Assembly: GCA_004154925.1 (NCBI GenBank)
Contig: QJNS01000016.1
Coordinates: forward strand, 62,001-126,000
Origin: Monosporascus cannonballus
Taxonomy: Eukaryota > Ascomycota > Sordariomycetes > Xylariales
Length of the DNA: 64,000 bases
Reading direction: 5' to 3'
Shown here piece by piece: positions 1,340 to 62,560 of this stretch (position 1 is the stretch's first letter; every line of letters starts with the position of its first letter). A program made the translations under genes and the position numbers. Below the pieces are notes generated by a model, which did not search any database, was not told the DNA's origin, and saw only the letters and a list, made by a program, of their open reading frames with translations.

Positions 1340-1954
1340 CCCTTTTTTTTCAAAATGTTGATCCGTATTATTAAAAATCGTCGTCAGGTTCTTTGGTCTA
1401 TTACGCGACGTTAAAATCTGTTTCTTATTTTTAACGATTTTAATTTTGAAATTATGACGTATTTTTTATATTTTTCCAAAGGCTGGAAATGCAAAATAAT
1501 GAAAAACGTTTCCAAATACAAGGCGTACGTTAAACGTAACTGTCCTTATGATAATAACGGCGTTCCCTTATTTTTCTTAAAGAATATTCGTGCCGAAAAT
1601 TAACGTTTAAAACGCGAAAAGGTATTTGCGGAAAAGCGTTTCCTAGAATTGCAAAAATGCTATTAATAAGAAATAAATAAGGCCATTATGCGGTTAATCC
1701 GTTTTCGAAAACAAAAAACGTTTTTTTATTCGAAAAAAGTTAAAATAATACAGCAAAAATTGCAGTCGTTAAAGGAACTGGAAAAGCAGAAGCGTCGAGA
1801 GCAGGCCAACGCCAAGGTTTTCTTAGCCGCCTTAGCTCCTTTCCTTAAGTTACCTGGCGTTACCTGGCCATTAGAAAACGTTAATTGGGATATTATTATA
1901 TCCGGTGGTTCCGTCGTTATTGGTAAAAGTTTTTTAATAAGCGCTAGGCGTTAA
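1340..1954 (+). pseudogene. Antisense accessory ORF of element A1
   Basis: Located between the pol end and the 3' LTR and oriented opposite to gag-pol. The longest open piece is 1688-1954 (88 residues) and contains a basic/acidic helix (around residues 20-40, QSLKELEKQKRREQA) and a C-terminal stretch NWDIIISGGSVVIGKSF. Upstream in related frames, interrupted by stops, are segments resembling the Cys-rich N-terminal part seen in A2, such as NNGVPLFFLKNIRAEN. The same layout recurs in A2 and A3. I recall similar Cys-motif plus coiled-coil hypothetical proteins as common in fungal genomes. The function is unknown, and it is neither gag nor pol. Confidence 0.6.
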
Positions 1955-1999
1955 TAAAGTTCTTAACGAGTTTCTAGGTATTTTCGGAATCCGGGTATT

Positions 2000-9039: not shown

Positions 9040-9537
9040 TAACGTTTTTTTATAACGTTTTAATTATGAATTCATTATAGAAAATAAACGAAACGTAAAA
9101 CCGTTTATTATGCGAATAATGTAAAACCGAAAATAATTTTTTTTGATATATTAAAAAGTTATAAAAAGGGAATAAAAGGCGGGGGAAAAAAGGTTAACCG
9201 AATTGTATCGTTAACAGGATAAAAAGTCGAAGAAATTTGTTAAAAAATTAAGGCATTTACGTTTTTAATAAAACCTTTTTAAAAAAAGGGCGGTAAAGTT
9301 ATTAAAAGAAGGTTTGGAATTAAACCAGTTAAAAAAACGGGAAAGAATAGAAGAAAAGTAGCGTTATATGGACGCGGAATAAGTACAATTTATATTTAAG
9401 ATGAACGTTATTTTGAAGGCGTTTATTTCTTTCGATTAAAATATTAAAGGTTTGGATTTAAACGGAAAACCTTTATTGCTTACGACCTTAACCGCGTTGG
9501 AAATAGTCGGTTAGGATTTTGGCGGTAAAATATCTTA
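9040..9537 (+). pseudogene. Antisense accessory ORF of element B1
   Basis: A degraded reading frame on the plus strand, opposite to gag-pol, next to the 3' LTR. It is rich in Lys/Arg in its first half. Its last part reads GLDLNGKPLLLTTLTALEIVG, a stop in place of one codon, then DFGGKIS and a stop at 9535-9537. The same C-terminal reading is recognisable in B2 on the opposite strand. It is read only through interruptions that fit RIP (CGA, CAA or TGG turned to stops). The product is unknown. Confidence 0.5.
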
Positions 9538-9599: not shown

Positions 9600-12500
9600 T
9601 CTTTTTATTTAATTAGTTATTAGATTTTGTTTTTAATTACTTTAAAGTCTAATATTTATTCGACTTTATATTTGTTAAAATTTTTTTTAAGTTTTAAGTT
9701 TATTTTTAACGGGGCGTTTTTAGGTATTAGTTTAAGTAAGGAAATATAAAAAACAAGGTATATTTTTATGTTTTTGGGTAACGATAATCGGTAATTAGTT
9801 TTGGAAATAATTTTTTTAACCTTAAATGGGTTAAGTTTTTTTCGTTTTGATTTATAAGATATTCGAGGTTACGTTTTGTTTTTGACGTAATAGGTAAACC
9901 TTATTTCTTTTCGTTAAAATTAATCTTTTAATTTTTTTTATTATAATATTAAGTTATCCGTTATTAAAGGAATTATAATTCGTTTTAAAAACGAATTTAA
10001 ATTATTTTGATTTTTATTATTAATATTTTTGTTTTTGGGATAATTATAATAATTTTTGGTACTTTATTAAGCGGTTATTTAGGTCGTTTTATTTTTGTAT
10101 TATATCCGTATATAGCGATATAAAAAGATACGCCTATATTTTCGTTAATAAATATATTATAAGCGATTTATGCCAATAATAAAAGTTTTACCCAGTTATT
10201 TTGTTAATAATTAACGTAATTTCGAAAATATTATTTTAAAATTTAATTAAATCGTTTTATTTATTTATCCGTTTAAAAATAATATATTGTCGAAAACTTA
10301 AGCTTAATACCTATTTATTTAAAAAAGTTAGTATTAAATTTTGAAATAAAAAACGTATTTTTATTAGAAATAATTTTTTCTGGTATCTTATATTTATTAA
10401 AGTAATATTTAATAAAGGCATAAATTAAATATTTTGCCATTACGTTTTTTTTAAAAAATAAAAAATATCCATATTTAGTAAATTTATTAATAATTACTTA
10501 TATTTTGTTATATTTAATTTTAATAATTAGGTTTTTAAATAAAAATAAATTAATAATAAAGTTCTAAATTATAATATTCTATGTTTTATTAAGAATATCG
10601 GTTAATTATAATAACCCGTAAGGCTTATAGCGTATTATTTTAGCCTTATTATAAATGTTATAATTTTTAATTATTTTTTTAATTATACGGCGTAATTTTG
10701 GAAAGTCATATTTTTCTTATAATCGTCTGGTGGTTTTGAAAATTCCTTGATATCCGTATAATAGGTTTTTATGGAATTTTTTTATAAATTATTCCTATTA
10801 ATCCTTAGGAATATAAATTTTGCCATAATATAACAATTAACTCTTTGGTTATCCTTTTAGTTATTAAATTTCCTTTTATTTTTCTGTATCGTAAAAATTC
10901 CGGAATTATGTTAAAAATTCGGGCGTTAGTTTTTTTATTATTTTATATAATTGTATGATATTATTTTTATTATATTATAATATTTATATATTTTTTGGGA
11001 ATTTTGGAATCGTAATTTTTTTTATGGCTAAAAATATCCGTTTAAATATTTTCCTTTTTTTGATATGGTATATTTTAAAGTTAAATCTGGATAAAAAAAT
11101 TATTTATTTTTTATGTTATTTATTTAGTTTTTAAATTTTTATAAACCGAATAAGGTTTTTGTAATTAAAATAAATGTCGAAAAGTTTTTTTTATTTTATT
11201 AAAATAAGGTTTTTATTTTTTAAAAGCGTTAATAATTATCAATAATTTTTTGTTGTAAATTTGATATTTAAGTTTTGCATTTCGGAATATTTTTAAGTAA
11301 TATATTATTAGGTATTATTTGCCGTTATTTTTTTATTATTTTAAAATTGCACCTAAAGCGTATTCCGAAATATTTATCTTTAGGCGTTTCTTTTTATTTG
11401 GGTTTGGTATTTTTATTATTAATCCGTTAATAATTATTCTTTTCAGTTTCCGGAATGTTTTTTTTATTTTCTTTAAAAGTTCGAATTTTTTTCCAACGTA
11501 TTTTTTGGTAATAAGTTTCGTTAACGATTTAATAATATCTCCGTATTTCTCGATTAGGCTACGTATATAACTTGTAAATCCTAAGATTTGTCGGATATTT
11601 ATAACGGTCGCCTTATCGAAAATAAGTTAATCTTTAATTATTTCCAGTTTGAAACGTTAAATTTGGATTTGGCCGGAAGTAAAAGTAAATCTTAAAAAAT
11701 CCAGTTTCTGGGTATATTATACGTTTTTGGCTAGGTTAATTCGAATATTAATTTCGTCTAGAATTTTAAGCACTTAAACGATATATTTTTTGTGTTTTTT
11801 TAAAGTTTCGGAATAAATAAGAATATCGTCAAGGTAGACAAATACGAATTTGTCTAAAAATTGTAGTAAAGTAATTATAACCAGATTTTGGAAACTGGCG
11901 GAGGCGTTAATAAGTTCCATCGGCATTATTCGGTATTTGTAAAGTCCATATACTGTTCTAAATATTATTTTCTATTTTTCTTTTTTGGCTATTTTAATAC
12001 GATAATAATTATTACGAAAGTCCAGCATTATAAATTATTTGGCTTTATTAACATTTTTTTAAAATGTTTATAAGTATTAAGGGATATTTATTTTTAATTG
12101 TAATATCGTTTAATTATTTATAATCGATTATTTTTCGGTAAATAAGGTTTCCGTTTTTATCGATTTTTTGTTTGTTATCCTTAATTTTTGGTACTATAAA
12201 AATAAGGTATTTAATAAGAAAATTAAAAAATTAGATATATTTTTTTTAAATTTAGTTATATATTTTTTATAAAACCTTTAATTTTTCTGGGTTTATGTGG
12301 TAAATCTTATGAAGCTTAGGATAATATTTTTTTAATAAGTATTTAATAATTTTATTAATTATGTAGCGGTAATTCATAATTTTTTTTATTTTTGAATAAT
12401 CGCTTAAATCTTTGATATTCTGGCGGTATCGTAAAGATTTAATTAGGGATCCGTATTTACTTAATAGTATAACAAATTTTTCGGATATTTTTTTTTGATA

Positions 12501-16091: not shown

Positions 16092-18646
16092 TCAGATCCC
16101 AGGTTTCCACGAGCAGGTATTGATGTGCGCATTGACATTCCCGTCTTCGAATACCGTCAAATAATCTGCCTTGCCATCGCCGTTAATGTCGGCGAAGCGA
16201 ACGGGACCTTGCGGGCTTACCCCCCGGCAATGACACCTATAGCAAACCAGTTGCGCGGTCTGCCAACATCAGGAATGTTGCCGGTGTTGTTGTAGGACTT
16301 GGCTGCGCCACCATCGTACACAATCAAGTATTCCGCACGCTTGTCACCTGTGATATGGGCGAAGCGCACCTTGCTACCGGGTTCGCCTACTCCCGTCGCC
16401 ACGCTATACCCGTCTTGCCAGATCCGCGTGCCCGGCTTGGGCGGGATGTTGCCATGGTTGCGGTACGCCGTGACCGCACCGCCGTCCCAGATAACGAGGA
16501 AGTCGGCCCTGCCATCGCCTGTGAGGTCGGCAAAGTGGACCTTATCTCCAGGCAGCCCCTAATCCCCGACGAAATTGTCAGACCCTCCTGCCAGCTGCGG
16601 CCCCTGCCTCTATCGGGGATATTCCCGTTGTTGAGAAACGCCTTCACGGCGCCGCCTCCATAAATAAGGAGATAGTCGGCCAGTCCGTCACCGTTCACGT
16701 CGGCGAACTCAATTCTGGAATTTGAGACGTCCTCTGAAGGACCCAGGGCGGTCTCGCCTGCATAATTCCACACCCCGTCGCCCCGGTTTAACCAGGCTCG
16801 TGCAGCGCCAAGCCGATCGACAAATATGATATCGCCCCTGCGGTCGCCGTCTAGGTCGGCAAAGCGAATACTTTTGATCTTATCCGGAATGATGTCCAAG
16901 TTGCGCCAAGCACAAACGGAGCCGTCCGCCGAGATTGCAAGGAAGTCGGCCCGGCCGTCGCCGTCAATTTCTGAAAACCGGATCATGCCGCCCGTGACGC
17001 CGCTGACGCCGGGCGCAAATGGTACCCCAGTCTTCCCAATTGCGTTTCGCGCTATCTTTGTTTAGGTTTCCTGAGTTGCGAAGGGCGCGCACCGCACCAC
17101 CTTTGTATACAACAAAGTAATCTGAAATACCGTGTTAGCGGAGAAAAAGGGGGAGGTGTCAGTCATTTTAGCTTGATGAGGAAGCGGGAGAGGCATCTGT
17201 TTAAAGAAATACGAATTAGGGGCCACGTACCAGCTTTGCCATCCCCATACAGGCGGGTAGTGTCTGGGGGAACCCCTGAAAGTCCCGGGGCAATCGTGAC
17301 AGGCTCCTCCCAGTTACGCTTGCTCGGTCTTTTCCGTTATTGTGCGTATTCTGTGCCTATTTGACTGCGCCACCGCTATACGCGATGACATAGTCGGCGT
17401 AACCGTCTCCATCCATATCTTCAATGCGTATCTTCTCCCGGACGTCAGGCCCCGTGGCCCACTTGGCGTCAAGCGCCTTGAAAGTCCTCCCGTCATCCAT
17501 GGTCTTCCAGACCCTTGCGGCCCCTTCCGAGTACAAGGCGATCATATCAGCGCGTCCGTCGTTGTCCATGTCGGCCATCCGGACCATGCTGCCAGTCACC
17601 GATTGCCAGGGCGGGTTGATCTTTCCAAGCTCGGTGAAAGGTAGTGGCATACGGTTGTTGATCCACGCCCGGACGGAGCCGTCATCGTCGGCGAGAATGT
17701 AATCCGTGAGCCCGTCGCCGTTCAGATCTGCAAGAATGACCTTGTCTTGACGTCCATTCCGCTGGGCAGGCATCAATGTTCCTAATTCTTCCCAAGTCCG
17801 GAAACCGTCGAAAATTGTACCCATTTTCTTCCAGTTGCCCCCTTCGCAACTGAAAATAGGGCCACTGCCTGCCTGCGTGCCAAGTCCGACTCCATCTTTC
17901 TCGCTTGGCTCCATGGGGTTCCGGATCCAGCCCTTTTCTATTTCCACCTTGATAGCATCCAGCCAAACAGTTGCCATCTTCCGGTACCCCTTGTCGTTCG
18001 GATGCTTCCTGTCCTTTAAGTCGTCCGAAGTGATTATTCCGCTCATATCGGCCAGGAGAACATGCTTTCCTGCCCTCTCGTTCTCCGCCACAAGTTCGTG
18101 AATCCGAGCGTTAAAAGCATCCGTGTTCGCTTGCATCCTCCGGTCATTGGCCCAGATAGTCTTAGCCACAATAACAGTGGTATCGGGGAGCCTATCTAGG
18201 ATATCGTCGATTATTCCTTGGACAAGCCCTGGGGCAGCGTCAACGTCGACCTCGAGGTCCATGTTGTTGGTCCCGGCATGGAGAAGGACAACGTTAGGGT
18301 TAGCCCCGAGGGAACTCCGTGCGTAGCCACGGATCTCGGCGAGGAAAGACCCACTGTGGCCTTCATGTGAGCTATCCTCCATCGTCCCGTCGACTAGGCT
18401 CCCGATCATGTCGATGTCGGCGGCAATATCCGCAAGCATCTCTCGGAAATGGCGTCTGTATCCGTTGCCATCGCTGGATCCACTGCCCTTGGTGATTGAG
18501 TCACCCAGTGGTTGAATACGTAAGACGGACTTGATAGGCTCGGGTGGGGGATCCTGGGATGGGGGGATCCTCTGGTGCGGGAGGCGTAGGTGTGCAACGG
18601 AGCTGCGAAGCACCCTTGGAAGTGCCCAGACTATTTGGGTAAAAGC
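16092..18646 (-). pseudogene. SGNH hydrolase with C-terminal FG-GAP/VCBS repeats, decayed
   Basis: The amino-terminal part is an SGNH/GDSL esterase domain: GDSIT with the catalytic Ser, then HAGTNNM, then HPND with the catalytic His. Seven or more FG-GAP/VCBS calcium-binding repeats follow (pattern D-x-D/N-G-D-G-x-x-D, for example DLNGDGLTDY, DMDGDGYADY, DVNGDGLADY). Family members are usually secreted enzymes acting on ester-linked glycans or lipids. Here the gene is broken: no ATG precedes the domain between 18535 and 18679; a stop follows the fourth repeat (17357-17359); and frame changes are needed near 17310, 17050, 16565 and 16225. A spliceable intron (17230-17122) and a natural end at 16092-16094 show a once-functional gene. 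Assembly indels in G/C runs remain an alternative explanation for some breaks. Confidence 0.75.
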
Positions 18647-18648
18647 AG

Positions 18649-19106
18649 CTATAAAGTGTCCGATGTATCCTGCACACACTTGCCGTGTACAGCGCCCTTT
18701 AAATCAACATAGCTTCCATCACGGCCCTTGTAATAAGCTGGGGTAAAGGTCGGCGTCCGAGAAACGAAGAAGGTGGCTAGATATACTAACTAAAGTGCTC
18801 ATTCGGACCTAAATTCCATTCGAGCACGGTTATATCAACACAGCCGCCCGAGCCCGTGCCGCAACCATCACAGCGAACACCGTGATTACTGCTTACGTCG
18901 TCGAGCTCTGGTATAAAGATAGAGTTATCCACATCACGACAATCCGGTGGCGAGTTATAGAACACGTAGCCCGCGAGACTTATCGATCCAGGAAAGTCGA
19001 CGAATGGTTGGAATTCGTCTACCCCGTAGATGTAGAAATCAGCAGCACCAACGGGATCAAAGATGGCAACTATGCCAGTCAAGGAGAAAAGGGAAATGGG
19101 GCGCAT
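18649..19106 (-). CDS. Small secreted cysteine-containing protein (134 aa, two exons)
   Basis: Exon 1 is 19106-18791 and exon 2 is 18737-18649, joined across a 53-bp GT-AG intron (18790-18738) that keeps frame and gives the ending HFTYYKGRDGSYVDL...KCVQDTSDTL. An amino-terminal signal peptide (MRPISLFSLTGIVAIFDPVGA) precedes a mature protein starting about ADFYIYG. Cysteines occur in NSPPDCRD, VRCDGCGTGSGGC and GKCVQD. The layout matches what I recall of a fungal family of small secreted proteins with a VRCDGC core and an LGHFTYY-like C-terminal segment, of unknown function. It lies head to tail with the SGNH remnant on the same strand and within 500 bp of a retrotransposon, a setting common for fungal effector-like genes. 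A TATA-like box lies about 90 bp upstream. The start is the only ATG before the signal peptide. Confidence 0.75.
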
Positions 19107-21764: not shown

Positions 21765-22141
21765 TATCACTACCCAATAAGCTCCGGCCTCAAGAAACGG
21801 TTAAACAAGGATTATACGGACCACTACATGGGTTACGTAACAGGTGATCACCACCAAGCCAGTGATCAGAAGTAATTAAAGGGGATCGTAAACGATCATG
21901 ATTACTACCGGTCGTATGATTATCGGCAATTAAATTAAGAAAAAAGGAAATATATACGCTTATTATTTTCATAATTTAGATAATACTAATTTGCAATATA
22001 ATATCGTTACCTAAGGTATCTTTGAAATTACGAAACGTAATACGATTATTAAATTTATTATTTAGATTTTTACAATACTTTTACTAATATAAACCCGTAC
22101 GATTAAGGCTTAATAATTAGTTAAACCGTTTAACCGTTATA
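21765..22141 (+). repeat. 5' LTR of element A2
   Basis: The outer 130 bp or so (from CCCAATAAGCTCCGGCCTC) is nearly unmutated, while the inner end is heavily RIP-mutated (CCGTTATA for CCGTCACA). Confidence 0.85.
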
Positions 22142-22199
22142 TATTATAATTTTTTTTAGTAATAACGTTAGATTCTAAGTAATATTTACTATTGTTAAA

Positions 22200-23500
22200 A
22201 TATTAACCAGCATTTAGAAAACTTTTACTTAGCAGCGTTAGGCTCGAATTCGGGAACTGGAGAAAAAGATCCGACAATTTAGGGCTACGTTACTTATTCA
22301 GATTATTTTTGCCCGTATAAAGCTTAAAAAACTAAAGCCTTACGATAAGAAAAATAACTTTTAAACCTTTTTGATTTAGGCGCGAATTTATTTTCGTTTT
22401 TTAAACCTTAATAATTTAATAAATATAGTCCTAATAATAGGAATATACTTAATAGGAAACGCGGTTAATTAGTTTAAACTTATTATACGGAATTTCCTAG
22501 AAATAAGAAAATCGGATAAAAAAATTTTATTAATAAAGTCTTTTTACTTTATACCAATTTCGAAAATAAAATACGCGATAATTTCGGTAATCCGGACAAA
22601 AAACGATTTACGGCTTAATAATTCCTGTAATTTCGATAAAAAGGATTTGCGTTTACATATATCGTAATATTTAAAATTTTTACGGCCAAAGCCGGATAAG
22701 AAAATAACGAAACCGATATCCTTATTAATATGTTTTATAAGAAATTAAAAAATGATATAAAAATTAAGATTATTCGGATTAAATAATTAATTGCTTTAAA
22801 CCGGTATATTATAAAGATAATCAAGATTAATAATCGATGATTTAAAAAACGATAGAAAAAAGGGATAATATGCTTTACGTTCGGGATATAACAAATCCAA
22901 CCAGAGGAAAAAACGAAACGCATCCTTTATTTTTTATGGAATGGCGTTAAAACTTATGAAATTAGACGTTACTTATAAACAAAATTAAAGTCAGATTAAA
23001 TGCTTTATAACAAAATAAAATATAAGGTTTATAAATACAAAAAACTCAAAACGTTATAATAAGATAATTAAATGCCTATATCAAAGAAATAATCCAGAAA
23101 TAATTAAGGAAACGATAACAAAATTATTAATATAATTTAAGCCAAATACGTATTAGGCTTATAATAAATAATTCAATAAGGATTATTACGATAAGAAATT
23201 TAACGCAAAATACGAAAAGCTAAAAAGCTGGCTTAATAAATATTGCAAATATAATAAAAGACATTATAAAAATAATTACGTAAGTATTAAAATTGGACAA
23301 AAAAACTTTATCCTAAAATACCCGATCGATATAGCAAAATGTACGCCACATATTATTAACGACGAAAATGTTCCGATTACGAAAAATGGAAATAGCATAT
23401 TTATGAACGAATTATTCGTATATATTATAAAGGATTCGAATTTTTAAATCGTACCGGAAATAATAAGAATAATAAGCAATAATATCGATAATTTCGAACT
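22200..23500 (+). pseudogene. gag remnant of element A2
   Basis: The plus strand can be read with stops and gaps as a gag capsid-like region. Segments include GNPDKKRFTA, then KGFAFTYIVIFKIF, then NETDILINMFYKKLKNDIK. These fit the retrotransposon gag core of fungal Ty3/gypsy elements, with a helix ending in a FYKGLKDDIKDEI-like motif. No uninterrupted frame survives. Confidence 0.6.
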
Positions 23501-23999
23501 ATAACCTTAGAAAATATTTAATAACTGGCTGAAATAAAGAGCTGGCCTGAAAAAAAAATAATGCCCATAGAAAAACCCCTTTGGTTATTATAAATAATAT
23601 AATTACTAAACGGAAAAGGAATTAATCCAACGTACGGTAAAAAAGCATTATTAAAAAGTTATTACGAATTTTTATTTTCAATTAATATTTATTATAAACC
23701 TTTACGAAAAAAATTATTAAAGAACAAATACGTCAGTTTATAAAGAGTTTTTTTGGAATAATAGCTAAAATAACGTATAATAGAATATAATTGTAAATAT
23801 GAAAAAATAATTTATTCGATAAGGAAAAATATTATAAAAAGATTAAGAATAATTAATACGATTCGAAGGAATAATACGCCGACAATAATAACAAATATAA
23901 CAGCTTAACGCGTTAAACGAAAAAAATATAAATAAAACTCGACAAATTCGAACAAAAATTAAAAGAAAATGATTATTTATAAAAAAGCCGCAAAATAAC

Positions 24000-26900
24000 G
24001 AAACCCAGAAAAGTTAAAGAGAATTCTCGAAAAAGATTTTAAACGCGACAATAAAAGCCGTTAATAATCTTATTATTTTGGAAATACGAATTAAAACGTA
24101 CTGATATATTATAATAGTGGATTACGGAGCTTTAAGCGAAAATTATATTATACTAAATATATTTAATAAGTTTAAATTGCTATAAAAATATAAGTTAAAA
24201 CCTTATATAACGACAAATACCGAAAATTAGAAATTCGCTTACGATAATAGAAAAATTATATACGAAATTAGTTACCTTAAGATTTTTATTTAAAAACGAT
24301 ATTAAATAGTTAATTTCGATATCGTTTTATTTAAAAATTACGATATAATCTTAAGATTACCATAAATACGTTAATACGAAATTTTAATTAACGGCAAAAC
24401 TGGTCAAATAAAGTTTGTTTTATTCCTTATTAATAAACGAAAAAAAAGAAATTATGATTTTAATACTTAATCGGTAATAACGACGAATATAGGCATAAAA
24501 ACATAATAAAAGCCTTATTACCTAAAAGGATAAAACATAAGAAAAAAACGGGCATTAAAGAAAAATACGATATATCGTTATTATTATCCGAACGAAATTA
24601 AGGCAATTAAATAACGATTTAAAATAACAAGAACAATAATTTAAAAAATTAGAAAATTTAACTAATATATTACTATAATACTATAAATATAAGCAATTTT
24701 TCAAAAGAGAACTCGATTCGAAATTACTAGAATATAACGAATAAGATTATAAAATAATCCTTAAAAAAGGATTTTCGACAAAGTTTTGCCCCATTTACAA
24801 TTTTAACGGAAACGAAATACGCATTTTTAAAAAATACCTAAAAGATCGGTTATAGAAAAAATAAATTCGACTTTTAAAATTACTAGCAGAATATCCGATA
24901 TTTTTCATACTGAAAAAAAAATAAAGAATTACGATTTATAATTAATTATCGATAATTAAACGATGTTATTATTAAAAATTGAATATTATTACCTTTAATT
25001 ACGGAAATAAAAAACCGATTTTACGGAGCCAAATAATTTATAACATTTAATCTTAAAGATAAATATAATTTTATTAAAATTAAAAAAATACGAAATAAAA
25101 ATAACCTTTAGAACAAAATACGGATTATTTAAATATTTGGTTATACTAATAGGATTTACGAATACATTAATAACTTTTTAACAGATAATAAATTATATAT
25201 TACAAAAATATCTCGATGTTTTCGTTATTTGTTATCTCGACGATATTCTTATTTTCTTAAAAATAAAAAAAGCATACGCAAAATATGTTCATAAAATTCT
25301 TTAAGTTTTATAAAACGTAAGGCTATTTATTAACGCAAAAAAAAATTAATTCCATAAATAGAAAAAAAATATCTAGAATATATTATCACCTTAAAATATA
25401 TTAAAATAAACTTTAAGAAAATTATTATAATTACGGAATAACAAACGCCAACGATAATTAAGAAAGTACAAACATTCCTTGGATTTGCCAATTATTATAG
25501 AAAGTTTATTCGAAATTTTAGCAAAATAATTATACCCTTAACGAATCTTATAAAAAAATTCAAATAAATACTAAATACGGAAAATATATTTCAAAATATT
25601 AAGAATACGATTATTAACGAATTAGTACTAATTATATACGATCTAAACCGTTGCGTTAAACTAAAAATCGATATTTCGCATTACGCGTTAAACGTAATAA
25701 TTAAATAACGAAATAATTAAGGTAAATTGTATTTTATTACATTTTTTTTCGTATAAATTAAAAGAAATCGAATTTAATTACGGTATTCCAGATAAGGAAT
25801 TTATGGCCATTATTATGGCATTTCGCGAATTTAGGTATTTCCTAAAGGGAAGTTTGTAGCAAATTAAGGTTTATACGGATTATTAAAATCTTGTCCGATT
25901 TACTACGATTAAAAAGCTTATAAGATAATAATTAAAATATGTAGAAAAATTGGCGAATTTCGACTTTATTATTATTTATAAAAAGGTTTAGAAAATAATA
26001 AAGCAAATACTTTAAGTAAGCGATCAAATTTCGAAAAAAAATTGGTTAAAGTTAGCTATATAATTTTCGATACCATTATAAAAGGATATTTACGCTTATG
26101 ACAGATTGTGATAATTCGGATAATACCTTTAGATATATACCAGAAAATCCAGCAGTATAACGATAATCTTTCAAAAAACTAAAAAAACGAATAAAATATA
26201 AGTTCCAAAAAAATATTAAAAGGATTTCGTACGAAAAATATATGAACATTAATTATACGGATATCCAGGAATCCATAAAACCCTAAAACGGCTTTAACGT
26301 ACATATTCCTTTCCTAAAATAAAATTAACAGTATAAAAAATTATACGGTAATACGATATTTACGCCAAAGTAAAGATTCGACGACATAAATCATACGAAG
26401 AACTATAGCTATTACTAGTCGTAAAACAACTGTGGCATTTAATCATATTCGATTTTATTATTAAACTTCCTATATCAGAAAATTTAATTACGGGAATATA
26501 TTACGATAGTATTTTCGTAATTGTTAACCGATTTACGAAATTATCCTATTTTTCACCATATTATAAGAATACAGACGCCGAACAAATAACATATATTTTT
26601 TTCAAATATGTTTTCAATATATTCGGATTATTTATAGAAATCGTTTCAAACAAAGGATCGATATTCGCATCTAAGTTTTGGCAAAGCCTAATAGCATAAA
26701 TCGATTTAAATTACAAGTTATCCAGCGTATTTAAACCTTAAACGAATGGATAAACCGAATGGATAAATTAAATTTTAAAAGCTTATTTACGATATTACAT
26801 TAATTACGAATAAAATAACTAAATTAAGAAATTGCTAATCGTACAGCTAATTTATAATATTAATTATTACGAAAACATTAAAATAATATCTGCGAATACA

Positions 26901-27483
26901 AATTTTGGGTTTATTTTAAAAGTTTACAAAAAAGTATACGATAACGGTTTAATTAATATCAAAGCACTCCTTATGTTAGAACAGCTATAATAACTGTACT
27001 AAAAAAATAAAAACGGAATTAAAATTCGTACGAAATCAAATAAGTAAATATTATAACCAAAAAAGGTTAAAGGGATTAACCTTCGAAAAAGGAGAAATAG
27101 TTTTCCTTATTACCAAAAATATTTAAATAAAACGACCTAATAAAAAACTCGATTTTAAATATATCGGTCTATACAAAATTACCAAGAAAATCTCAAAAAA
27201 CAATTACTAATTGGAATTTTTACCAAAAGTTAAATTTTATCCAATTTTTCATATTTCTTTATTCGAATTAATAACAGATATAATTAAGGTACATACGGTA
27301 CAAAACGATATTGAAATAAAAAACGAAAAAATATACGAAATGGAGAAAATTTTCGATATACGGAAATAAAACGGATTTACTTAATACTTAATTAAATGAA
27401 AAAAGCATTCGGATTTCGAAAATATCTGGGAACTTACCAAAAATCTTATGGATATTTAACGCCTGCTGAAAAGTTTTTACTAG
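24000..27483 (+). pseudogene. pol remnant of element A2 (RT, RNase H, integrase, chromodomain)
   Basis: Motifs readable in order on the plus strand: YLDDILIF (25233 on; catalytic Asp pair retained), RNase H segment NYGIPDKEFMAIIMAFREF then KVYTDY and VRFTTIKKL (25780-25930), integrase zinc-finger segment GYPGIHKTLKRL (about 26260), and a C-terminal chromodomain-like segment KKHSDFENIWELTKNLMD (27400-27455). Stops interrupt every part. The frame runs to TAG at 27481-27483 and overlaps the antisense ORF by 38 bp. Confidence 0.75.
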
Positions 27484-28075
27484 CAATAACGGGCGCGTCC
27501 TAATTAACAGCCGACTAGTTAATAGCCGGGATATCGGGCTAATCGGCCGCGATATACGTTAATATAATAACCATAACGGCAGCCTCTAATTGTTCTTATT
27601 CCTAACGCTTTTATTCCTTTAATTCGTTTAACGATTAAAATCCGCGTTATATCATAGTAATACCTTTCGAACGAACTAGCATCTTTTGCTTACGTAAACA
27701 AATAAAACGAAAAAAAACTTTATTTATCTTTTCCTAATAATAACGTTAAACTTTGAAGTAAAACCGTTAAAACTTTAATAATGGTTTTTTAACAAGCACT
27801 TTCTTACGTTTTAAACGTTAATATTCGTAACGAATATTCTATAAAAAAATAAATACGCCGGTATTATCGCAAAACCGATTTCGGTTAATATATTTCTTAC
27901 ACCTTAAAACGTTTTCCTTTATTTTATACCTTATATTTTTCGAAAAATAATAAAAACAAGGCATAATTTCGTACTCAAATTCGTTAAAGATTTTTACGAA
28001 ATTAATACGACGAATAGTAAAAAAACGAAAAACGCAATAAATCTTGGAAATATGAAACGATATGATTAAAAACAA
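27446..28075 (-). pseudogene. Antisense accessory ORF of element A2
   Basis: Open part 27839-28075 includes NVLRCKKYINRNRFCDNTGV, a Cys-rich basic motif. Continuing toward 27446 in the same general frame with RIP-type stops are CLRKQKMLVRSKGITMI, then SLNELKE, a charged helix, and finally INWSAVN and DAPVIASKNFSAGVKYP before TAA (27448-27446). This parallels A1 (LRKQK-like, NWD, SGGS segments) and A3. The ORF lies opposite to gag-pol, between pol and the 3' LTR. It could be a regulatory or nucleic-acid-binding protein, but that is only a guess. Confidence 0.6.
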
Positions 28076-28144
28076 AAGAAAGGATATTTATCAAACGAAA
28101 AAAAAAGAAATTTTAACAGCAAGATTTTGGAAAAGGAAAAATCG

Positions 28145-28514
28145 TATTACAACTTAATAAGTTCCGGCCTTAAGAAACGGTTAAATAAGGATTATACGAA
28201 TCATTACATAGGTTACGTAACAGGTAATCACTATCAAGCTAATAATTAAAAATAATTAAAGGGAATTGCAAGTAATTATAATCACCACTGGTTGTATAGT
28301 TACGGGTAATTAAGTTTAAAAAATATATACGTTTATTATTTCCATAATCTAAATAATACCAATTTGTAATATAACATCGTTACTTAAGGTACTTTTGGAA
28401 TTACGAGACGTAATACGATTATTGTATTTATTGCTCAGATTCCCACGATATTTCTGCCAACATAAACCCGTACGACTAAGGTTTAATAGTTGGTTAAACC
28501 GCCTAGCCGTCACA
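28145..28514 (+). repeat. 3' LTR of element A2
   Basis: The outer right half is well preserved (CCAACATAAACCCGTACGAC...GCCTAGCCGTCACA) and the inner left half is RIP-mutated. Confidence 0.85.
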
Positions 28515-28519
28515 GAAAA

Positions 28520-28930
28520 GAGCTGATACGGAGTACTTATAACAGCCTAACGGCAGAATATCAGGGGGTTCCCAAAACCGTTAAGCGGTTAAATACTAGT
28601 TATTTTAGGAGGGTATAAAGGACGTAAAGAAATATGTAACAACGTATGCGGTTTACCAGCGGACAAAAGTTAGGTACTATTTACCTTATGGCGAATTAGG
28701 TTCCTTGCCAGTACCCATAATTTCTTTCCAAGAAATTTCGGTGGAAAAGATCCTTGGCCATAGAGGGTACGGCCGTAATAGGCAGTACCTAATACGGTAG
28801 AAGGGGTATAGTAACGAGGATAATTCGTGGGAGCCGTCGGATAACGTAAATGAGGGGGTAAAACGAGAATACGAAAAAGGAACAAAAAAGATTTAAAGAT
28901 GGAACAAAACAAAAATAACAATTCCATTTA
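28520..28930 (+). pseudogene. Integrase-chromodomain fusion remnant of element C1
   Basis: The plus strand reads an integrase zinc-finger remnant (NSLTAEYQGVPKTVKRL), then VYQRTKV and PYGELGSLPVPIISFQEISV. It passes directly into a chromodomain: EKILGHRGYGRNRQYL, KGYSNEDNSWEPSDNV. In intact elements some 900 bp of integrase core and linker separate these parts, so the catalytic core has been deleted, apparently at ISVD/ISVE-like similarity. Chromodomains in such elements are known to guide integration to marked chromatin. RIP is mild here, with few stops. Confidence 0.65.
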
Positions 28931-31661: not shown

Positions 31662-33524
31662 TCAGTCAACACCCCTGGCTTTCATGAAATCCACCAAGTC
31701 AAAAAAGCTCTTCTTGTACCTCCTCTCCTGGGTTGTGCGGTTGACCGTCTGGATGCCAAAGTGCGCATCGTAGTCCCCGAATTCCCAGTTGTCGGTGTAC
31801 GACCAGGCATACGCGCCGATAACTTCGACGCCATCCTCCCAGATCGCCTTGAGCACTTCCGACATGAAGCTTAGGTAGTAGGTGCTCCGGGGAGAGTCGA
31901 AGAGCTGGTCAGGGAGGTCCTTGTCCGCCTCCCTAAAGACGGGGAAGCCAAACTCTGCGAGGACGACCGGGGTTCGCCAGGTGTTGTGGAGGTAATTGAG
32001 GTAGCTCCGGAGGTATGTTGGCGTAATGTACACGTAACTTTGCGAGCGGTATCCTATGTTCCAACCGAATACGTCGGCTGTGGTCTGGCTTACGCAGTGA
32101 GGGCGATAAGGGGATGAGTAGTCCCCGGCGCAATCCGCGATGCTCTGCTTGTCTCGCGGGATCGGCGGAGCAATCACAGTAGCTGTATATGGATCCACTG
32201 CGAGGAACGACGCAGTCCCGTTAATGTAAGTGAGATCTTCCTCTGACAAAGGAATGTAATCGTGGATAGTCCGCTTGTACGACTCCGGGTAGTCCTGGCC
32301 GAGGAAGATAGGGTTGCAGAAGGGACCCAACTGGAAAGAATTAAAATGATCCGCTGCAATAACATCTGCTTCGCTTTCTGGATTCCGTGGAACGCCGAAA
32401 TTATTGTTAAACTTGAGCGAAATTTTGCCTTCGCCCTTGAGCTCGTCCTTGTAGAAGTGGTAGACACGGGCATGCGATTTAATCACATGATCGATGGACT
32501 TGCCATTGTGCGAATAGAGCAGTGGCTCATTGAAAGTATACCAAGTGGCGACGCGATCCGAGAAATGCGTCATGACAATCTTGGCGTAGTTAACAAAGGC
32601 GTCGGGGAAGCTCTCGTTCTGGTAACCACCGTTGACATAGCCGATGTCCGGCGGCTCTCGAGCAGTCGTGTGGTTGTCGCCATAAAACTGCAGCGGCGTA
32701 TCAAAATGTAAAAGCGTGACCTCAGGCACCATACCCTTTTCAATGACGAAGTTGATTAGCGAGTTATAATGATCAATGCCTTGTTGATTAACGGGCGTCC
32801 CGGGCAGGGCGAATGGCAGGATGCGCGTCCACGCGATGCTGAAAGAGAAGTGCTTGACGCCCATGGCCGCGACGCGCTCAATGTCCTGCTTGTAGTAATA
32901 GTAGTTCTCGTTGGTGACGTAGTCCTTGGCGCGGCCATCCTGGACGAGGATGTCCATGAGGGACGGCGACTTGCCCTCCTCGGCCGTAGCGCCCTCAACC
33001 TGACTGGCCGAGCTGGAGACGCCGAACTCGAAGCCTTCGGGGAAGTTGTAGCAGTCGGTCGGGCCGAAGTAGTCGCGGGGAGGCAAGACGAGCTCCTCGC
33101 TGGGCACGGGCGTGGCGGAGACGGTAGTGCTGAAGACGCCCGTCTCGGTAAAGTTAGGAGGGTTGGCGTACTCCCACAGGCCCGTCCACGCGGCGCTCCC
33201 GTACGGATCGTCCGTATCGGTCGCCGAGTCTGTTGCGTTGGGATCCCATTTGCCCCAGGTCGTGTAGGACTGCGGCGGAATCAGCGTCCTGAGCGACTCG
33301 GGCGGCGCGGCGTAGGTGGCGGTTGTCGTGGGAGGGGGCCGCGACGTCGCATATCTCACTGTCGCCGTGAGAGTGTAGCTGAAGGGTGAGTGAGAGTATG
33401 TGGGCCCCCTGCTGGGAGCGTTGTTGCATTGAGGGCGAGGAGTCGGTCCCTCGGTGGGGAGGAAGACCTGCTGGGCAGTGGCCAGTGATGCCAGGAAGAA
33501 CTGGCTTAGGATTGGAGGCGCCAT
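31662..33524 (-). CDS. Secreted glycoside hydrolase family 1 (beta-glucosidase-like), 620 aa
   Basis: Single exon. The ATG at 33524 gives a signal peptide (MAPPILSQFFLASLATAQ); upstream in-frame codons lack an ATG. Residues about 20-155 form a Ser/Thr/Pro-rich region. The GH1 barrel starts at FPEGFEFGVSSSASQVEGA (about 161). The acid/base Glu is in TFNEP (E333). The nucleophile is most likely in VVLAEFGFPVF (E524), where classical GH1 has TENG. The substrate-pocket segment is WSYTDNWEFGDYDAHFGI. Several NxT/S sequons suggest N-glycosylation. Expected reaction: hydrolysis of beta-glycosides outside the cell. The gene stands alone near the TE border with its 3' end toward the solo LTR. Exact substrate cannot be told. 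Confidence 0.88.
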   Translation of the reverse strand: MAPPILSQFFLASLATAQQVFLPTEGPTPRPQCNNAPSRGPTYSHSPFSYTLTATVRYATSRPPPTTTATYAAPPESLRTLIPPQSYTTWGKWDPNATDSATDTDDPYGSAAWTGLWEYANPPNFTETGVFSTTVSATPVPSEELVLPPRDYFGPTDCYNFPEGFEFGVSSSASQVEGATAEEGKSPSLMDILVQDGRAKDYVTNENYYYYKQDIERVAAMGVKHFSFSIAWTRILPFALPGTPVNQQGIDHYNSLINFVIEKGMVPEVTLLHFDTPLQFYGDNHTTAREPPDIGYVNGGYQNESFPDAFVNYAKIVMTHFSDRVATWYTFNEPLLYSHNGKSIDHVIKSHARVYHFYKDELKGEGKISLKFNNNFGVPRNPESEADVIAADHFNSFQLGPFCNPIFLGQDYPESYKRTIHDYIPLSEEDLTYINGTASFLAVDPYTATVIAPPIPRDKQSIADCAGDYSSPYRPHCVSQTTADVFGWNIGYRSQSYVYITPTYLRSYLNYLHNTWRTPVVLAEFGFPVFREADKDLPDQLFDSPRSTYYLSFMSEVLKAIWEDGVEVIGAYAWSYTDNWEFGDYDAHFGIQTVNRTTQERRYKKSFFDLVDFMKARGVD

Positions 33525-35930
33525 CGCACTGGAGAGGCCCAGGGCGCATAGACGACGCTGATATGGCCGACTGAAGACCAAGCCATGGATACGCGAACCA
33601 CTACCAACTTGTAGTCGACGGCCAAGCACTCATCGTTCGAGCAACTTCAATGCCGTCCACATTGCCGCGCCAAGGAGGAGTTCGCTGCTCGCAAAAGCTA
33701 TCACTGCCAAGGTGGATATCAATTCGGACCGAAGACAGTTCACGACTCGTGATCCCTAGACATGATCCGGGGAGATTTAGGCCGACGCTTGACTTGCATG
33801 GCGAGCGATGCGCCACTGGCCCAAGGAAGCCTGATTCGACGACTCGCCATGGCGTCACGAGGGGGCTCCGCCTTCCCCGCGTGCGGAGAATCTGGTGTGC
33901 GTGATGCGGTATTTCCTCTTGTCGTCCCGGATATTGGAAACCTACCATTCTCGTGTGCAACGCTGGCTCGTATTCGCCAATTGGGTACGAGAGCCCAACC
34001 GATCAGCCCCTATACGGTGTCGACTTACACGAAGCCCAAGGCCAGCACTCCGGCCGAGGCCCCGACAACTGCAAATTTCCGATGAAGAGCAAAGGCAACC
34101 CTACAGCTAAATACATCGATCACGACGCCCATAATGGCGTACCAGAACTGCAGTGGCCGCTGTCGTCGCATTAGTCCCTGGAGGGCTGAGGGTCCAGCTC
34201 AAGCGCCCCCCAAAGACACGACTAAGCCAGGGCAGCAAGGCTAAAAACGCGATGTACGACATCGCCAAAGCGGTAACGACTTTGTTAATCCCGTGAAGGC
34301 TTCCCCCACGAAGTTGCGACGGTAGAAGAGCGATAGGAGAGAGCTTGATGAATCCGAAGGCTTAAGGCGACTGGATCGGGTTGGCTCAGTACATATTGAG
34401 CGTCATGAGGTTCTGCCGCTCCGTATCGGCCGTCACGGTCGCGGTCGCGGTCTGCATACCGTCGCCGCACAAGAGAAGAGGGCAGCTGCCAGGGCGCGGC
34501 GGCACCATCGGCGGGGATGGGAGTCCGCTCGTACGAAGCTCATACCCAGAGGCGTAGCAATGTCAGGGCGGCTCCCACGACCGTTAATTATTGCCGCGTA
34601 TGTCGGTATAGCTCGCTCGGGTGCATACGCAGACGACATTGGTAACCTCTCGCCCCGGAAGAAATGATATATGCAGAGAAAAGCTGAGTATGGGCGATGG
34701 TGAAACAGTTATGATCTAACAAACCTATATCCCTACTTGCAGTCTGCCGGTCATGTAGCCGCGGCCGAATGATTCTATCAACTCCCGCGAGCCGGCCATG
34801 AAATCCTTCAGACTGTGGAGCGTGACGTGGCTGAAGATGGTGGCAGTATAGTAGCCGTACAAACGACGAGTGTGTCATCCTAAAAGACGAGGCTGTAGCT
34901 AGAGCCCAAATCAAAAGCCGGGACTGCCAAACAACCCCGCTAACATATGCGCCTCCATAGTTTACATTGAATGTTTCAGGTTGAGGTTACAGTAAACTGC
35001 GAGCCTTTTACGACGTGCCCCTTTGGACGTCCATATCAACTCTCCAATACCTAGTGGGCTACAGTAGCACTACTAGTCGACGTTTAATTGTGTGGCATTG
35101 GACTACGCAGCTCCCCTGTGACGAAGGCTATGTCTCTAATTTGAGACTTGAGGGCCTTTTCCTTCGATTGACAAGGCTATAAGAAATTGGCTGGCGTCTT
35201 CTCTTGAGCCAACGCCGCGTGTTGTTAGGTACTCAGAGCGCATCGGTGCTTGCGGTCTTCAATATTGTTGTATATAAGGCTCAAAAAGGGGTATGGCAGG
35301 GTCCGACGGGAAGTGAGCTAGGTATGTCAGATTAGCCAGTTTCGGCCAGTGATGAAGGATCGGTGGTGTGGCTCGGAACATGCAAGCAACGATTAACCAT
35401 CGCAACAGAATCATGAGCGCAAAGTGTGGCTCTTCATCTTATAGGACCTATGCTCTCCAAATATACAGCGGCCCATCACAGCACCCAGTTAAGGCTTTGA
35501 ACACCCCCCTTTCACGTTTCATGACTCTTTTATGCTTCTCTTTCCCTTCGACCCGATACGGACCGCGTGCGGCTTTCGTCGCTCCGGAGCTATTCTATAA
35601 CTCGGCTAGCTAGTGTAACTAGCTCTCGGCTGGCTGGAGCCAAACTATAAGAAGTACATAAATGCAACACATTGCACAAGAACTCTGGCCCCTATTCCGT
35701 CACCCCCACACAGTAGATGCCCGGGCCACAAAGGTGTCTTCATTTTTACCCCTCTCTTGTAGGCCCACCCCCTTTCCGCCATGAGCCCAATCTCTCGAAA
35801 ACCGGGGATATGTACCGCGTGGATTCCGGGATTGGGGTCTCCTGCATCACCCGTCCTCCTCAGTTTGACTTTGATGCCCTCAGATTTTCGTGGTATAATC
35901 CCTTGATAGACTTGGACGGAGTGTACAGCT
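33525..35930. other. Long intergenic region without a supported gene
   Basis: GC-rich sequence gives many overlapping short frames on both strands (for example 33762-34085 plus, 34588-34914 minus), but none shows a domain, signal peptide or plausible splice pairing. Includes the promoter side of the GH1 gene. Confidence 0.4.
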
Positions 35931-42838: not shown

Positions 42839-44686
42839 TCAACTCCTCAAGAACGTCTTAAAAACATCGCTCTGCGTGCAGTCGGTCCAGGGATACCCGA
42901 TCTCGCGGAGGCGGTCCTCGAGGTCGGGGACCTCGGCGTCGGGGCACTGGACGCCCGCGAGGATCTTTCCCACGTCGCTGCCGTTGTTGCGGTACTGGAA
43001 CAAACTGATATTGAAGCGCAGGCGCAGGGTGCGCAGGAACTTCTCGAGGGCGCCCGGCCGCTCGGGGAAGTTGAACATGTAGAGGCGCTCGTCGGCGACG
43101 TCCGAGCGCCCGCCGACGAGGTAGCGCACGTGCGACTTGGCGAGCTCGTCGCCCGACAGGTCCGTGACCGTCATTGTCGCGTTTGGGTCCCCCGCGATGC
43201 GGTCCATCAGCGCCTGCAGCTCGGCGGTGCGCTGCGACGCCGCGCCCGACAGCGAGATACCCACGAGCACGTTGGCCACCTCGTCCGTGGCGTAGCGGTA
43301 CGAGAACTCCGTCACCGCGTGCGGCATGACGTTGTTGATGAGCTCCGCGAATGCCCCGGGGCGCTCGGGGATGCTGACGCACAGGAGTGCCTCCTTGCCC
43401 TCGCCCAGCGTCGCGCGCTCCGCCACGAACCTCAGCCGGTCGAAGTTCATGTTGGCGCCGCTAGTAACGGCCACGACGGAGCGGTTCGGGTCGCCCGACG
43501 GGTTCGCCGCGACCCACTTCTTGAGGCCGGCCAGCGACAGCGCGCCCGCGGGCTCCACGATCGAGCGCGTGTCCTCGAATACGTCCTTGATGGCGGCGCA
43601 GATCTCGTCCGTGTTTACGAGGATCACCTCGTCCACCACTTCGGATGCGATGCGGAACGTCTCCTCGCCGACCGTCTTGACGGCCGCGCCATCGGCAAAC
43701 AAGCCCACATGCTTCAGCACCACCCGCTTCTTCTCTCTTAACGACTGGACCATGGCATTGGCGTCCTCGGCTTCGACCCCAATGATCTTGACGTGCGGTG
43801 CAATTCGTTTGATGTACACCCCGACCCCGGCAATGAGACCGCCTCCACCGACGCAGCAGAATACGGCCTCGAGCTTCTGGATGTTTGTCTGTCGGAGCAG
43901 CTCCATGCCTATAGTACCCTGGCCGGCAATGACGTACGGGTCGTCGAACGGCGGGATGTCGATAAGCCCGTGTACCCTCTCTAGCCTCTTGCATTCCTCC
44001 TTGGCAGCGTCGAAGTCTTGGCCGTGGAGGACCACGCAGCCGCCCAACCTTGACACATTCCTGTGCTTGATGCTAGGCGTACCCTGGGGCATGACGATGG
44101 TGGCGGGTACCTTTAATAATCTGGCAGAGTAGGCCACTCCTTGGGCATGGTTCCCGGCACTGCAAGCAACGACGCCCTTCCAGCTCTGGCCCCGGTCCAG
44201 GTGTGCCATTTTGTTGTAGGCTCCGCGCAATTTGAAACTGAAGACGGGCTGCTCGTCTTCTCTTTTTAGCAGCACTTTGCATTCGAGGCGATTCGAAAGG
44301 TTTGTGGCGGGCGTTAGTGAGGTCTCTCTGCATGCTTCGTATACTCGTGATGTGAGGATGAGTCGTAGATACTACAGCCACAGCGCAACAGTCAGCCATT
44401 GGAACCAATTCCTCATATTAAAAAGCCGAGAAAGTGAATAATAGCATCGGGTTATCTCGGAGAATGCATCACGAACATCGGGGTGCCCGTTGGGTAGTAT
44501 AAACTCTTCCGGTACGATGTTCCTGATGCGGGCCTGGTGATCCTCCGATGGCGGCGACGGGTTCGCGCTGTACTCGGTGAGCGACAAGCCGGAGAGGGAC
44601 GGTTGACGGGGCGAGTGGCCGTTGACGCCGTTCTCGACGCCATTGGCCATGACGGCATCGACCGGTACGGAATCCGGGCCCGCCAT
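42839..44686 (-). CDS. ILV1: Threonine dehydratase (580 aa, two exons)
   Basis: Exon 1 44686-44477 and exon 2 44371-42839, with a 105-bp intron (donor GTTCGT, branch-like CTGAC, acceptor TGTAG) that joins PNGHPD to [16 protein letters not shown]-dependent catalytic domain: [18 protein letters not shown] with the Schiff-base Lys at about residue 117, SAGNHAQG, and the glycine loop VGGGGLIAG. Two ACT-like regulatory domains follow ([13 protein letters not shown] and [13 protein letters not shown]). The enzyme converts threonine to 2-oxobutanoate, the first committed step of isoleucine synthesis, is feedback-inhibited by isoleucine, and works in mitochondria in fungi. The amino-terminal 60 residues are polar, as recalled for other filamentous fungi. 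ATG chosen at 44686, since the frame extends upstream without another ATG. Divergent from RCF1. Confidence 0.93.
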
Positions 44687-51921: not shown

Positions 51922-52139
51922 CGATTTCCCTTTTCCCAAAATTTTGTTCTTAAAATTTCTTTTTTCCTAATAAGTTTTTTCTATATACCTTTAATATATC
52001 TTCCGGTATATTCAAACGTTATTTTCGTAAATTCGAATAACGACTTGCCTTAGTTAATTTAATTGAATTCGAAAGTTTTAACGCGATATTTTGTTTTTTT
52101 TATTTTATTCGGCAACTTAATTACCAAATAATAAATAGG

Positions 52140-52570
52140 GTTTTTCGTTATAAAAAATGTATTCGTTAAAGTTGTTCGTATAACGGAACAGAAATCCCTA
52201 TTTCCATAATTAATCGTTATATTATAAAATCGAAAAAGTTAAAAAAAGAAAAACTAGCGGCCGAAAAATTTTTATCCGAAGTTTTTATGCGTTTTTTTTT
52301 TGCATACGTCGTTAATATTAATACTATTAATCTTAAAGTGCGAAATATGTTAATCGTACCCTTTAATCCTTAAATAATTCCAACGATTTTATGCAGTTAG
52401 AATCGAAATCCGTAATCGAGGTTTAGGCTTTAGAAGGGGTAAACGTTATTGATTGGGATGCGGTAGACTAAAGGCTTTTTTTCGTAGATCTCGTGGATTA
52501 GGATATTATTATTTCGGGTGGTTCCGCCGTTATTAATAAAAGTTTTTTAACAAGCGCTAGGCGCCAGTAA
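52140..52570 (+). pseudogene. Antisense accessory ORF of element A3
   Basis: Opposite to gag-pol, between pol and the 3' LTR. Readable pieces with RIP stops and frame gaps: GTEIPISIINRYII, KSKKLKKEKLAAEKFLSEVF, VIDWDAVD, and the C-terminal DIIISGGSAVINKSFLTSARRQ (read in two parts) ending at TAA 52568-52570. The last segment matches A1 closely, showing one ancestral ORF. Confidence 0.55.
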
Positions 52571-62123: not shown

Positions 62124-62560
62124 ACGCCTTTATTATGGCGTTTATTTTTAAAATAAGTTATACTTATTTCGTTTTTATATAACGTCGTTTTTTTTCTATC
62201 TTTTTCTATTCTTTTAACTAATCCAGTTCGTAATTTTCAAAAAGCAGCTATAACCTTTTTTTCTTTAAAATATTTTTTAACGATATAAACGTTATAATTT
62301 ATTTATTTTTTTCGATATTTCCTTTTGAAATTTTCGTTATAGTTTTACGAACTCGTTTTTAATAGTATGACGTTCTTTTTGGAAACGGTTACGTTCGGAA
62401 TTAATATTTTTTAACGAAAATATAATAATTACTAATTTATCATAATAATATTAACGACAGGTATAATAATAATAACTTAAAATATTTTTTATCATAAAAT
62501 ACTTAAACTTCTTAAATAAAAAATAATTAGGACAAGGTAATACCTCAAATCCAAACTTGA
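62008..62560 (-). pseudogene. Antisense accessory ORF of element B2
   Basis: Minus strand between the pol end and 3' LTR. The C-terminal part parallels B1 (KFGFK, then GRSGFWR in place of GLDLNGK...GxDFGGK) and ends at TAA 62010-62008, inside the chromodomain tail of pol on the other strand. The amino-terminal limit is uncertain. Strong RIP. Confidence 0.5.

What the first reader, a model, noticed from the sequence alone, without database searches (positions are those of the whole stretch)
27446..28075. Reverse-oriented accessory ORF in family-A retrotransposons, overlapping pol tail to tail
A1 (1340-1954, +), A2 (27446-28075, -) and A3 (52140-52570, +) each carry, between pol and the 3' LTR and opposite to gag-pol, remains of one protein: a Cys-rich basic motif (RCKKYINRNRFCDNTGV in A2), an LRKQK/charged helix, and a C-terminal NW-x-x-(I/V)...SGGS or VIASKNF segment. 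In A2 its stop codon (27446-27448) lies inside the pol chromodomain and overlaps pol by 38 bp. Conservation of position and sequence in copies of both orientations argues against a chance frame. It would need its own promoter, probably in the 3' LTR firing inward. A DNA-binding regulator, silencer-escape factor or antisense control of pol are possible roles (inference).
Basis: partly seen in the sequence, partly recalled or inferred. Interest (0 to 1): 0.85.

Follow-up and report, generated by a model that had tools for sequence, protein, structure and literature searches.

The report
Antisense gene in fungal Ty3 retrotransposons
Mutated copies of a fungal jumping gene carry, on the strand opposite to its replication enzymes, the remains of a real small protein that resembles a miniature zinc-cluster gene regulator; genes in this position are known from other retrotransposons, but their function is not.

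Summary
A2 (27446-27964, minus) is a mutated copy of a real protein-coding gene, antisense to pol, tail to tail, between pol and the 3' LTR. All 84 fetched loci (82 distinct places, all fetched by matching the ORF) show this layout. Transversions, which RIP (the fungal repeat-mutation defence) does not make, fall on its third codon positions between element families (A1 against L064: 1, 1, 22). Unmutated relatives exist in public protein data. The window holds five copies (one weak) in two element families, not three in one. The overlap with pol is 62 nt in both subfamilies examined, not 38.

The protein has a six-cysteine motif, C-x2-C-x6-C-x8-C-x2-C-x6-C, the spacing of Gal4-type Zn2Cys6 clusters, then a long predicted helix. 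The Pfam zinc-cluster model scores below cut-off (10.8 against 21 bits), so I call it Zn2Cys6-like and do not file it there.

Best reading: a small dimeric DNA-binding regulator made from an antisense transcript starting in or next to the 3' LTR. Promoter, DNA binding and target are inferred. Antisense genes at this place are already known (brtn of Botrytis Boty elements; plant Grande, Retand). Homology with brtn could not be tested.

The parts
27446..27964 (-). A2 antisense ORF, internal Met column to stop; the frame stays open upstream to 28087, start unsettled
27869..27958 (-). six-Cys region of A2, spacing C-x2-C-x6-C-x8-C-x2-C-x6-C (several Cys are Tyr in this copy)
27446..27507 (.). 62-nt tail-to-tail overlap of the antisense ORF and pol
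27082..27507 (+). pol tail of A2: SH3_Tf2-1 and chromodomain, pol stop 27505-27507
21765..28510 (+). A2 chromodomain Ty3/gypsy element with LTRs near 21765-22137 and 28145-28510
1355..1957 (+). A1 antisense ORF (candidate start 1355, internal Met 1454, stop 1955-1957)
52089..52564 (+). A3 antisense ORF remains, frame broken; 36.3 bits for 52089-52325, 2.5 bits for the rest
62241..62525 (-). B1 antisense ORF remains in a second element family
   Evidence: 36.9 bits; pol tail 61647-62042 plus
9164..9361 (+). B2 antisense ORF remains, weak
   Evidence: 14.8 bits; pol tail 9596-9883 minus

Best explanation
An accessory gene of chromodomain Ty3/gypsy elements, antisense, between pol and the 3' LTR. 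Shown: protein-level constraint, a repeated tail-to-tail layout, a six-Cys motif with Zn2Cys6 spacing, unmutated relatives, decay by RIP in this genome. Predicted: a long helix, probably a coiled coil, then a Trp-bearing tail that is acidic in 3 of 4 relatives. Inferred: the 3' LTR, or the short stretch inside it, starts an antisense transcript; the product is a small dimeric nuclear DNA-binding protein (zinc cluster plus coiled coil, like a miniature Gal4-type factor) that acts on LTR transcription, much as HBZ of HTLV-1 acts from its antisense 3' LTR transcript (HBZ recalled from general knowledge).
For: Third-position transversions (19 of 38 aligned pairs at p<0.01, pairs not independent), strongest in the Cys (3/2/21) and coil (1/0/22) zones and absent on the LTR side (11/8/12). 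In A2 exactly six of the codon columns 1-169 have the Cys/Tyr pattern, at the Zn2Cys6 spacing. The motif is complete in P0003 and P0004. P0003's one Pfam hit is Zn_clus over residues 25-57. Helix 66-150 of P0003, pLDDT about 96-98 from 71 to 140. Same 62-nt overlap in A1 and A2. 84 of 84 fetched loci antisense to a pol tail.
Against: Zn_clus is below its cut-off (10.8 against 21 bits) and absent for P0002, P0004, P0005 and for the 12 mutated copies. P0002 and P0005 do not hold the full motif. The Cys region of the model is of low confidence (block means 43-50) and pTM is 0.34. No expression or DNA-binding data. In A1 two of the six columns (3 and 25) show no Cys in 31 rows. Stop counts per frame do not single out the ORF.
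Confidence: 0.42

Rival explanations
1. A real accessory protein that works after transcription: it joins the element's nucleic acid or integration complex (nuclear import, targeting beside the chromodomain), and the Cys cluster is structural or binds nucleic acid without sequence preference.
For: Same protein-level evidence; it sits beside the chromodomain in all fetched loci; a review suggests retroviral-accessory-like roles for such ORFs (PMC7264820, section 7).
Against: Zinc-cluster spacing plus coiled coil is the layout of fungal transcription factors (recalled); no direct evidence either way.
Confidence: 0.33
2. The antisense transcript matters, as a source of double-stranded RNA or interference with pol, and the protein is secondary.
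For: Tail-to-tail overlap with pol; antisense RNA roles are discussed in PMC7264820 (passages).
Against: RNA function does not predict third-codon-position transversions or six Cys columns.
Confidence: 0.1
3. The protein acts on the host: it counters silencing or RIP, or alters host genes.
For: The ORF diverges faster than the pol tail (26-56% against 54-67% identity to A1 over 17 loci, one without an ORF hit), as in a conflict with the host; relaxed constraint would look similar.
Against: The divergence is mostly in the C-terminal part (21/13/24) while the Cys and coil parts are constrained. No target known.
Confidence: 0.1
4. A chance open frame on the strand opposite pol, or in spacer DNA, made to look conserved because the copies are related.
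For: Copies within a family differ almost only by transitions (about 1% transversions, no codon signal). In A2 the frame is not poorer in stops (12.8 per copy against 11.1-14.4 in the other frames).
Against:: unmutated relatives, third-position transversions, six Cys columns.
Confidence: 0.02

Closest known systems
brtn of Boty-like Ty3 retrotransposons (Botrytis cinerea, Sclerotinia sclerotiorum; Zhao et al. 2011, Virology 417:248; paper not held, known here from citing papers)
   Same: Additional antisense gene between pol and the 3' LTR of a fungal element with a chromodomain pol (PMC7264820 passages; PMC4227169 passages).
   Different: Sequence of BRTN not available here, so homology, length and motif are not compared; it may be the same family.
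Antisense aORFs of plant elements: Grande gene23, RIRE2, Retand, PvRetro13 (PMC7264820)
   Same: Position and orientation; function unknown; some products nuclear.
   Different: Other element lineages. PvRetro13 ORF2 and Retand ORF4 are reported with other domains. No sequence comparison made.
Gal4-type Zn2Cys6 transcription factors (PF00172)
   Same: Six-Cys spacing; coiled-coil-like helix after it.
   Different: Below the Pfam cut-off; carried by a retrotransposon; much smaller than typical members (recalled).
HBZ of HTLV-1 (recalled; the antisense 3' LTR promoter of HTLV is mentioned in PMC7264820)
   Same: A factor with a coiled-coil-type dimerisation part, encoded on the antisense strand near the 3' LTR.
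   Different: bZIP, not a Cys cluster; a retrovirus. An analogy only; no homology claimed.

Membership tests
Antisense accessory ORFs between pol and 3' LTR (aORF-3R) | lies between pol and the 3' LTR, opposite to gag-pol | tested here: met
   84 of 84 fetched loci antisense to a pol tail; the LTR side was seen for the window elements, not checked locus by locus
Antisense accessory ORFs between pol and 3' LTR (aORF-3R) | kept in most copies of the family | tested here: inconclusive
   5 of 5 Ty3 elements in the window, one weakly; the genome loci were fetched by matching the ORF, so copies without it would be missed
brtn family | sequence homology to BRTN | not testable with these tools
   paper not held; no sequence at hand
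Zn2Cys6 binuclear cluster (PF00172) | six Cys at C-x2-C-x6-C-x5-12-C-x2-C-x6-8-C (range recalled) | tested here: met
   A2 Cys/Tyr columns 3, 6, 13, 22, 25, 32; complete in P0003 and P0004, not in P0002 and P0005
Zn2Cys6 binuclear cluster (PF00172) | match above the curated Pfam cut-off | tested here: not met
   P0003 10.8 bits against 21; no hit in P0002, P0004, P0005 or 12 mutated copies
Zn2Cys6 binuclear cluster (PF00172) | binuclear zinc fold | tested here: inconclusive
   Cys region block means 43-50 pLDDT, four sequences, no zinc in the method
Zn2Cys6 binuclear cluster (PF00172) | sequence-specific DNA binding | not testable with these tools
   needs the bench
Ty3/gypsy chromodomain element | RT, then integrase, then chromodomain, between LTRs | tested here: met
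   RVT_1 and Integrase_H2C2 above cut-off, SH3_Tf2-1 above cut-off, Chromo 22.9 against 25.1 bits just below; LTRs

The most novel reading that the evidence does not exclude
Fungal Ty3 elements have long carried their own miniature Gal4-type transcription factor, expressed from the 3' LTR on the antisense strand, that reads sites in their LTRs and sets sense transcription or latency: an independent parallel to HBZ of HTLV-1.
Probability: 0.3. Interest if true: 0.75.

Novelty: new variant of a known kind. Interest (0 to 1): 0.52.

Why it matters
The review seen here (PMC7264820, section 7, on plant elements) says no clear similarity to database proteins has been described for antisense retrotransposon ORFs and that their function is unknown. 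A Zn2Cys6-like motif with a coiled coil gives a concrete, cheaply testable prediction for this one. It also shows a way to find such genes in RIP-destroyed genomes: transversion-only codon tests and Cys/Tyr columns recover a protein feature from copies that look like noise.

Tried and rejected
Pfam on short stop-free pieces gave nothing relevant. A protein search with a 94-aa piece gave none at E<=1, probably because of the length filter. IMG/VR, GTDB genome contigs and plasmids gave no relative. Within-family transversions are too few for a codon test. Stop counts per frame were not decisive. CCG/CGG triplets kept in at least half of the LTR copies were not weighed against chance, and CpG context is hit less by the mutation seen here, so they are a lead only. 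PDB sequence search with the four relatives: 12 weak hits, best E 0.055, AlcR E 0.56. A fold search was not run, because the model is one confident helix plus low-confidence parts. Considered and set aside: a chance frame; a pure antisense RNA.

Full report
WHAT IS THERE. The window is G000:C79:62001-126000 of an 88.8-Mb genome in 618 contigs. GC-rich gene islands alternate with AT-rich retroelements. The elements show RIP: GC 0.21-0.25, TpA/ApT 1.08-1.11 and (CpA+TpG)/(ApC+GpT) 0.55-0.64 in four elements, against 0.55, 0.79 and 1.09 in the gene island. C/T and G/A differences among copies lie mainly in CpT and CpA context. The genome has at least 111 matches to the fungal Zn2Cys6 domain (150 of 157 candidates scored), so the host is a fungus, probably an ascomycete (inference).

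THE A2 ELEMENT. It spans about 21765-28510 with LTRs near 21765-22137 and 28145-28510. X-stopped pieces of its pol match RVT_1 (2.8e-8), Integrase_H2C2 (3.1e-8) and SH3_Tf2-1 (3.5e-12) above cut-off, and RT_RNaseH_2 (0.0035) and Chromo (8.4e-5) below cut-off. It is a chromodomain Ty3/gypsy element.

THE ANTISENSE FRAME is present in A1, A2 and A3 as reported. An alignment of 12 copies gives a protein of about 170 aa from an internal Met. In 31 aligned rows per subfamily (30 loci plus the window copy, which is itself one of the 30) this Met column is ATG in 20 and ATA in 11, in both A1 and A2. An upstream start at 1355 in A1 (ATG 15, ATA 14 of 31) is supported by codon-position bias in 1355-1453 and by the relative P0001, which by eye reads Val at the internal Met position. 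The column I took as equivalent in A2 is ATT in 30 of 31 readable rows, so the A2 start is unsettled.

ENDS AND OVERLAP. The A2 antisense stop column is TAA in 30 and TGA in 1 of 31. Both overlaps are 62 nt.

POSITION. In 84 of 84 fetched loci (82 distinct places, two of them the window's own A1 and A2) the ORF is antisense to a pol tail, with BLAST-hit ends -115 to +222 nt apart. All these loci were fetched by matches to the ORF and part of each query overlaps pol, so this is not an unbiased sample. The search tool scored 40 of 893 DNA candidates and 150 of 1328 protein candidates, so copy number is a lower bound. In the window, a profile scan found the ORF in 5 of 5 Ty3 elements: A1 and A2 (both in the profile), A3 36.3 bits, B1 36.9, B2 14.8; ten shuffled windows gave at most 7.1.

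IS IT CODING? RIP makes transitions, so I counted transversions only. Between families they fall on codon position 3 of the antisense frame: A1-L064 [1,1,22], A1-L061 [2,2,16], L064-L063 [0,2,19], L064-L062 [2,1,21], L064-L076 [1,1,25], A2-L076 [6,7,21]. Of 45 pairs among ten sequences, six were left out by design, one gave no alignment, and 19 of the 38 aligned reach p<0.01; pairs share sequences and are not independent, and only the best aligned stretch was counted. Pairs without the signal include A2-L079 [7,3,8], A2-L082 [5,3,2], A1-A2 [3,4,5] and the three led by L061, whose frame is shifted. By zone, against L061, L063 and L064: LTR side 11/8/12, 1280-1354 2/7/7, 1355-1453 1/6/17, Cys region 3/2/21, coil 1/0/22, C-terminal part 21/13/24, pol overlap 0/1/0, pol only 1/10/9. 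Within families there are about 1% transversions in the ORF and no signal. Stop counts did not discriminate well: A1 6.4 per copy against 5.9-13.8 in the other five frames, A2 12.8 against 11.1-14.4. One frame on the pol strand shares the same third position; identity is highest in the antisense frame in 7 of 10 pairs (A1-L064: 96 of 139 against 78 of 137 in that frame), and in the other three that pol-strand frame is higher. The database relatives match the antisense frame, which decides it.

RELATIVES. The 12-copy alignment found P0001 (E 2.7e-7) and P0002 (E 0.68) in 5.8 billion proteins; profile comparison with P0002 gives E 7.8e-11. P0002 then found P0003, P0004 and P0005 at 2.8e-31, 3.6e-21 and 7.3e-19. 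They are open frames on contigs of 981-4830 bases, organism unknown; I could not see whether pol lies beside them. P0002 finds 39 places in this genome; the best 20 were fetched and all 20 lie beside a pol tail.

WHAT THE PROTEIN LOOKS LIKE. In A2 exactly six of codon columns 1-169 (columns with fewer than 15 readable rows skipped) are at least 85% Cys or Tyr with two or more Cys: 3, 6, 13, 22, 25, 32. In A1 they are 6, 13, 22, 30 and 32; columns 3 and 25 are Tyr in 30 of 31 with no Cys. Tyr is what RIP makes of Cys codons. The spacing C-x2-C-x6-C-x8-C-x2-C-x6-C is that of Zn2Cys6 clusters (range recalled) and is complete in P0003 and P0004, not in P0002 and P0005. P0003's only Pfam hit is Zn_clus at 10.8 bits over residues 25-57, cut-off 21; P0002, P0004, P0005 and the 12 mutated copies gave none. 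AlphaFold models residues 66-150 of P0003 as one helix, pLDDT about 96-98 from 71 to 140; the Cys region is at 43-50 and the tail at about 39-51; pTM 0.34. The best 42-residue heptad moment exceeds all 500 shuffles in P0002 and P0004, and all but 13 and 19 in P0003 and P0005; the window was chosen as the best, which flatters the test. The last 60 residues hold 12, 15 and 11 acidic residues in P0003-P0005 but 4 in P0002, with one or two Trp. I call it Zn2Cys6-like and do not file it under PF00172.

MECHANISM. Shown: protein selection on the Cys and coil parts, layout, decay by RIP. Predicted: the helix. Inferred: an antisense transcript from the 3' LTR or the short gap inside it, dimerisation, DNA binding, an effect on LTR transcription. 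The ORF diverges faster than the pol tail (26-56% against 54-67% identity to A1 over 17 loci, one without an ORF hit), which would also fit a factor in conflict with the host.

LITERATURE. Antisense ORFs between pol and the 3' LTR are known in plants and in Boty of Botrytis cinerea and Sclerotinia sclerotiorum (PMC7264820, passages and section 7). brtn is named in PMC8365987, PMC4227169 and PMC5987419 (passages). The original paper, Zhao et al. 2011, is not held and was seen only in reference lists. I saw no paper giving such an ORF a Zn2Cys6-like motif in the listings of searches, which cover open-access papers only; the original brtn paper may contain such a statement.

VERDICT. A real gene at a place where such genes are known, with a new and testable idea of what its protein is.

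Noticed in passing
window 55912-63039: A second-family Ty3 element (B1) lies between two DNA stretches that match A2 (52527-55909 and 63163-63981), so it appears inserted into A3.
   Followed up: partly
window 62000-62900 and 8700-9750: B1 and B2 align in DNA mainly in the pol tail (77% over 320 nt) and hardly in the antisense ORF, so the ORF diverges much faster than pol.
   Followed up: partly
L062 474-965 (minus): A copy whose N-terminal part is A1-like (80% DNA identity) and whose C-terminal end resembles A2: a likely recombinant inside the antisense ORF.
   Followed up: no
window 28130-28540 and 850-1212: CCG/CGG triplets kept in at least half of the copies at several LTR positions, including a CCG pair eight bases apart in both subfamilies; not tested against chance.
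   Followed up: no
window 16387-18679, 31662-33629, 42839-44275, 46563-48530: GC-rich islands with ordinary-looking genes: GDSL lipase with FG-GAP repeats, glycosyl hydrolase family 1, threonine dehydratase, TLDc protein.
   Followed up: no
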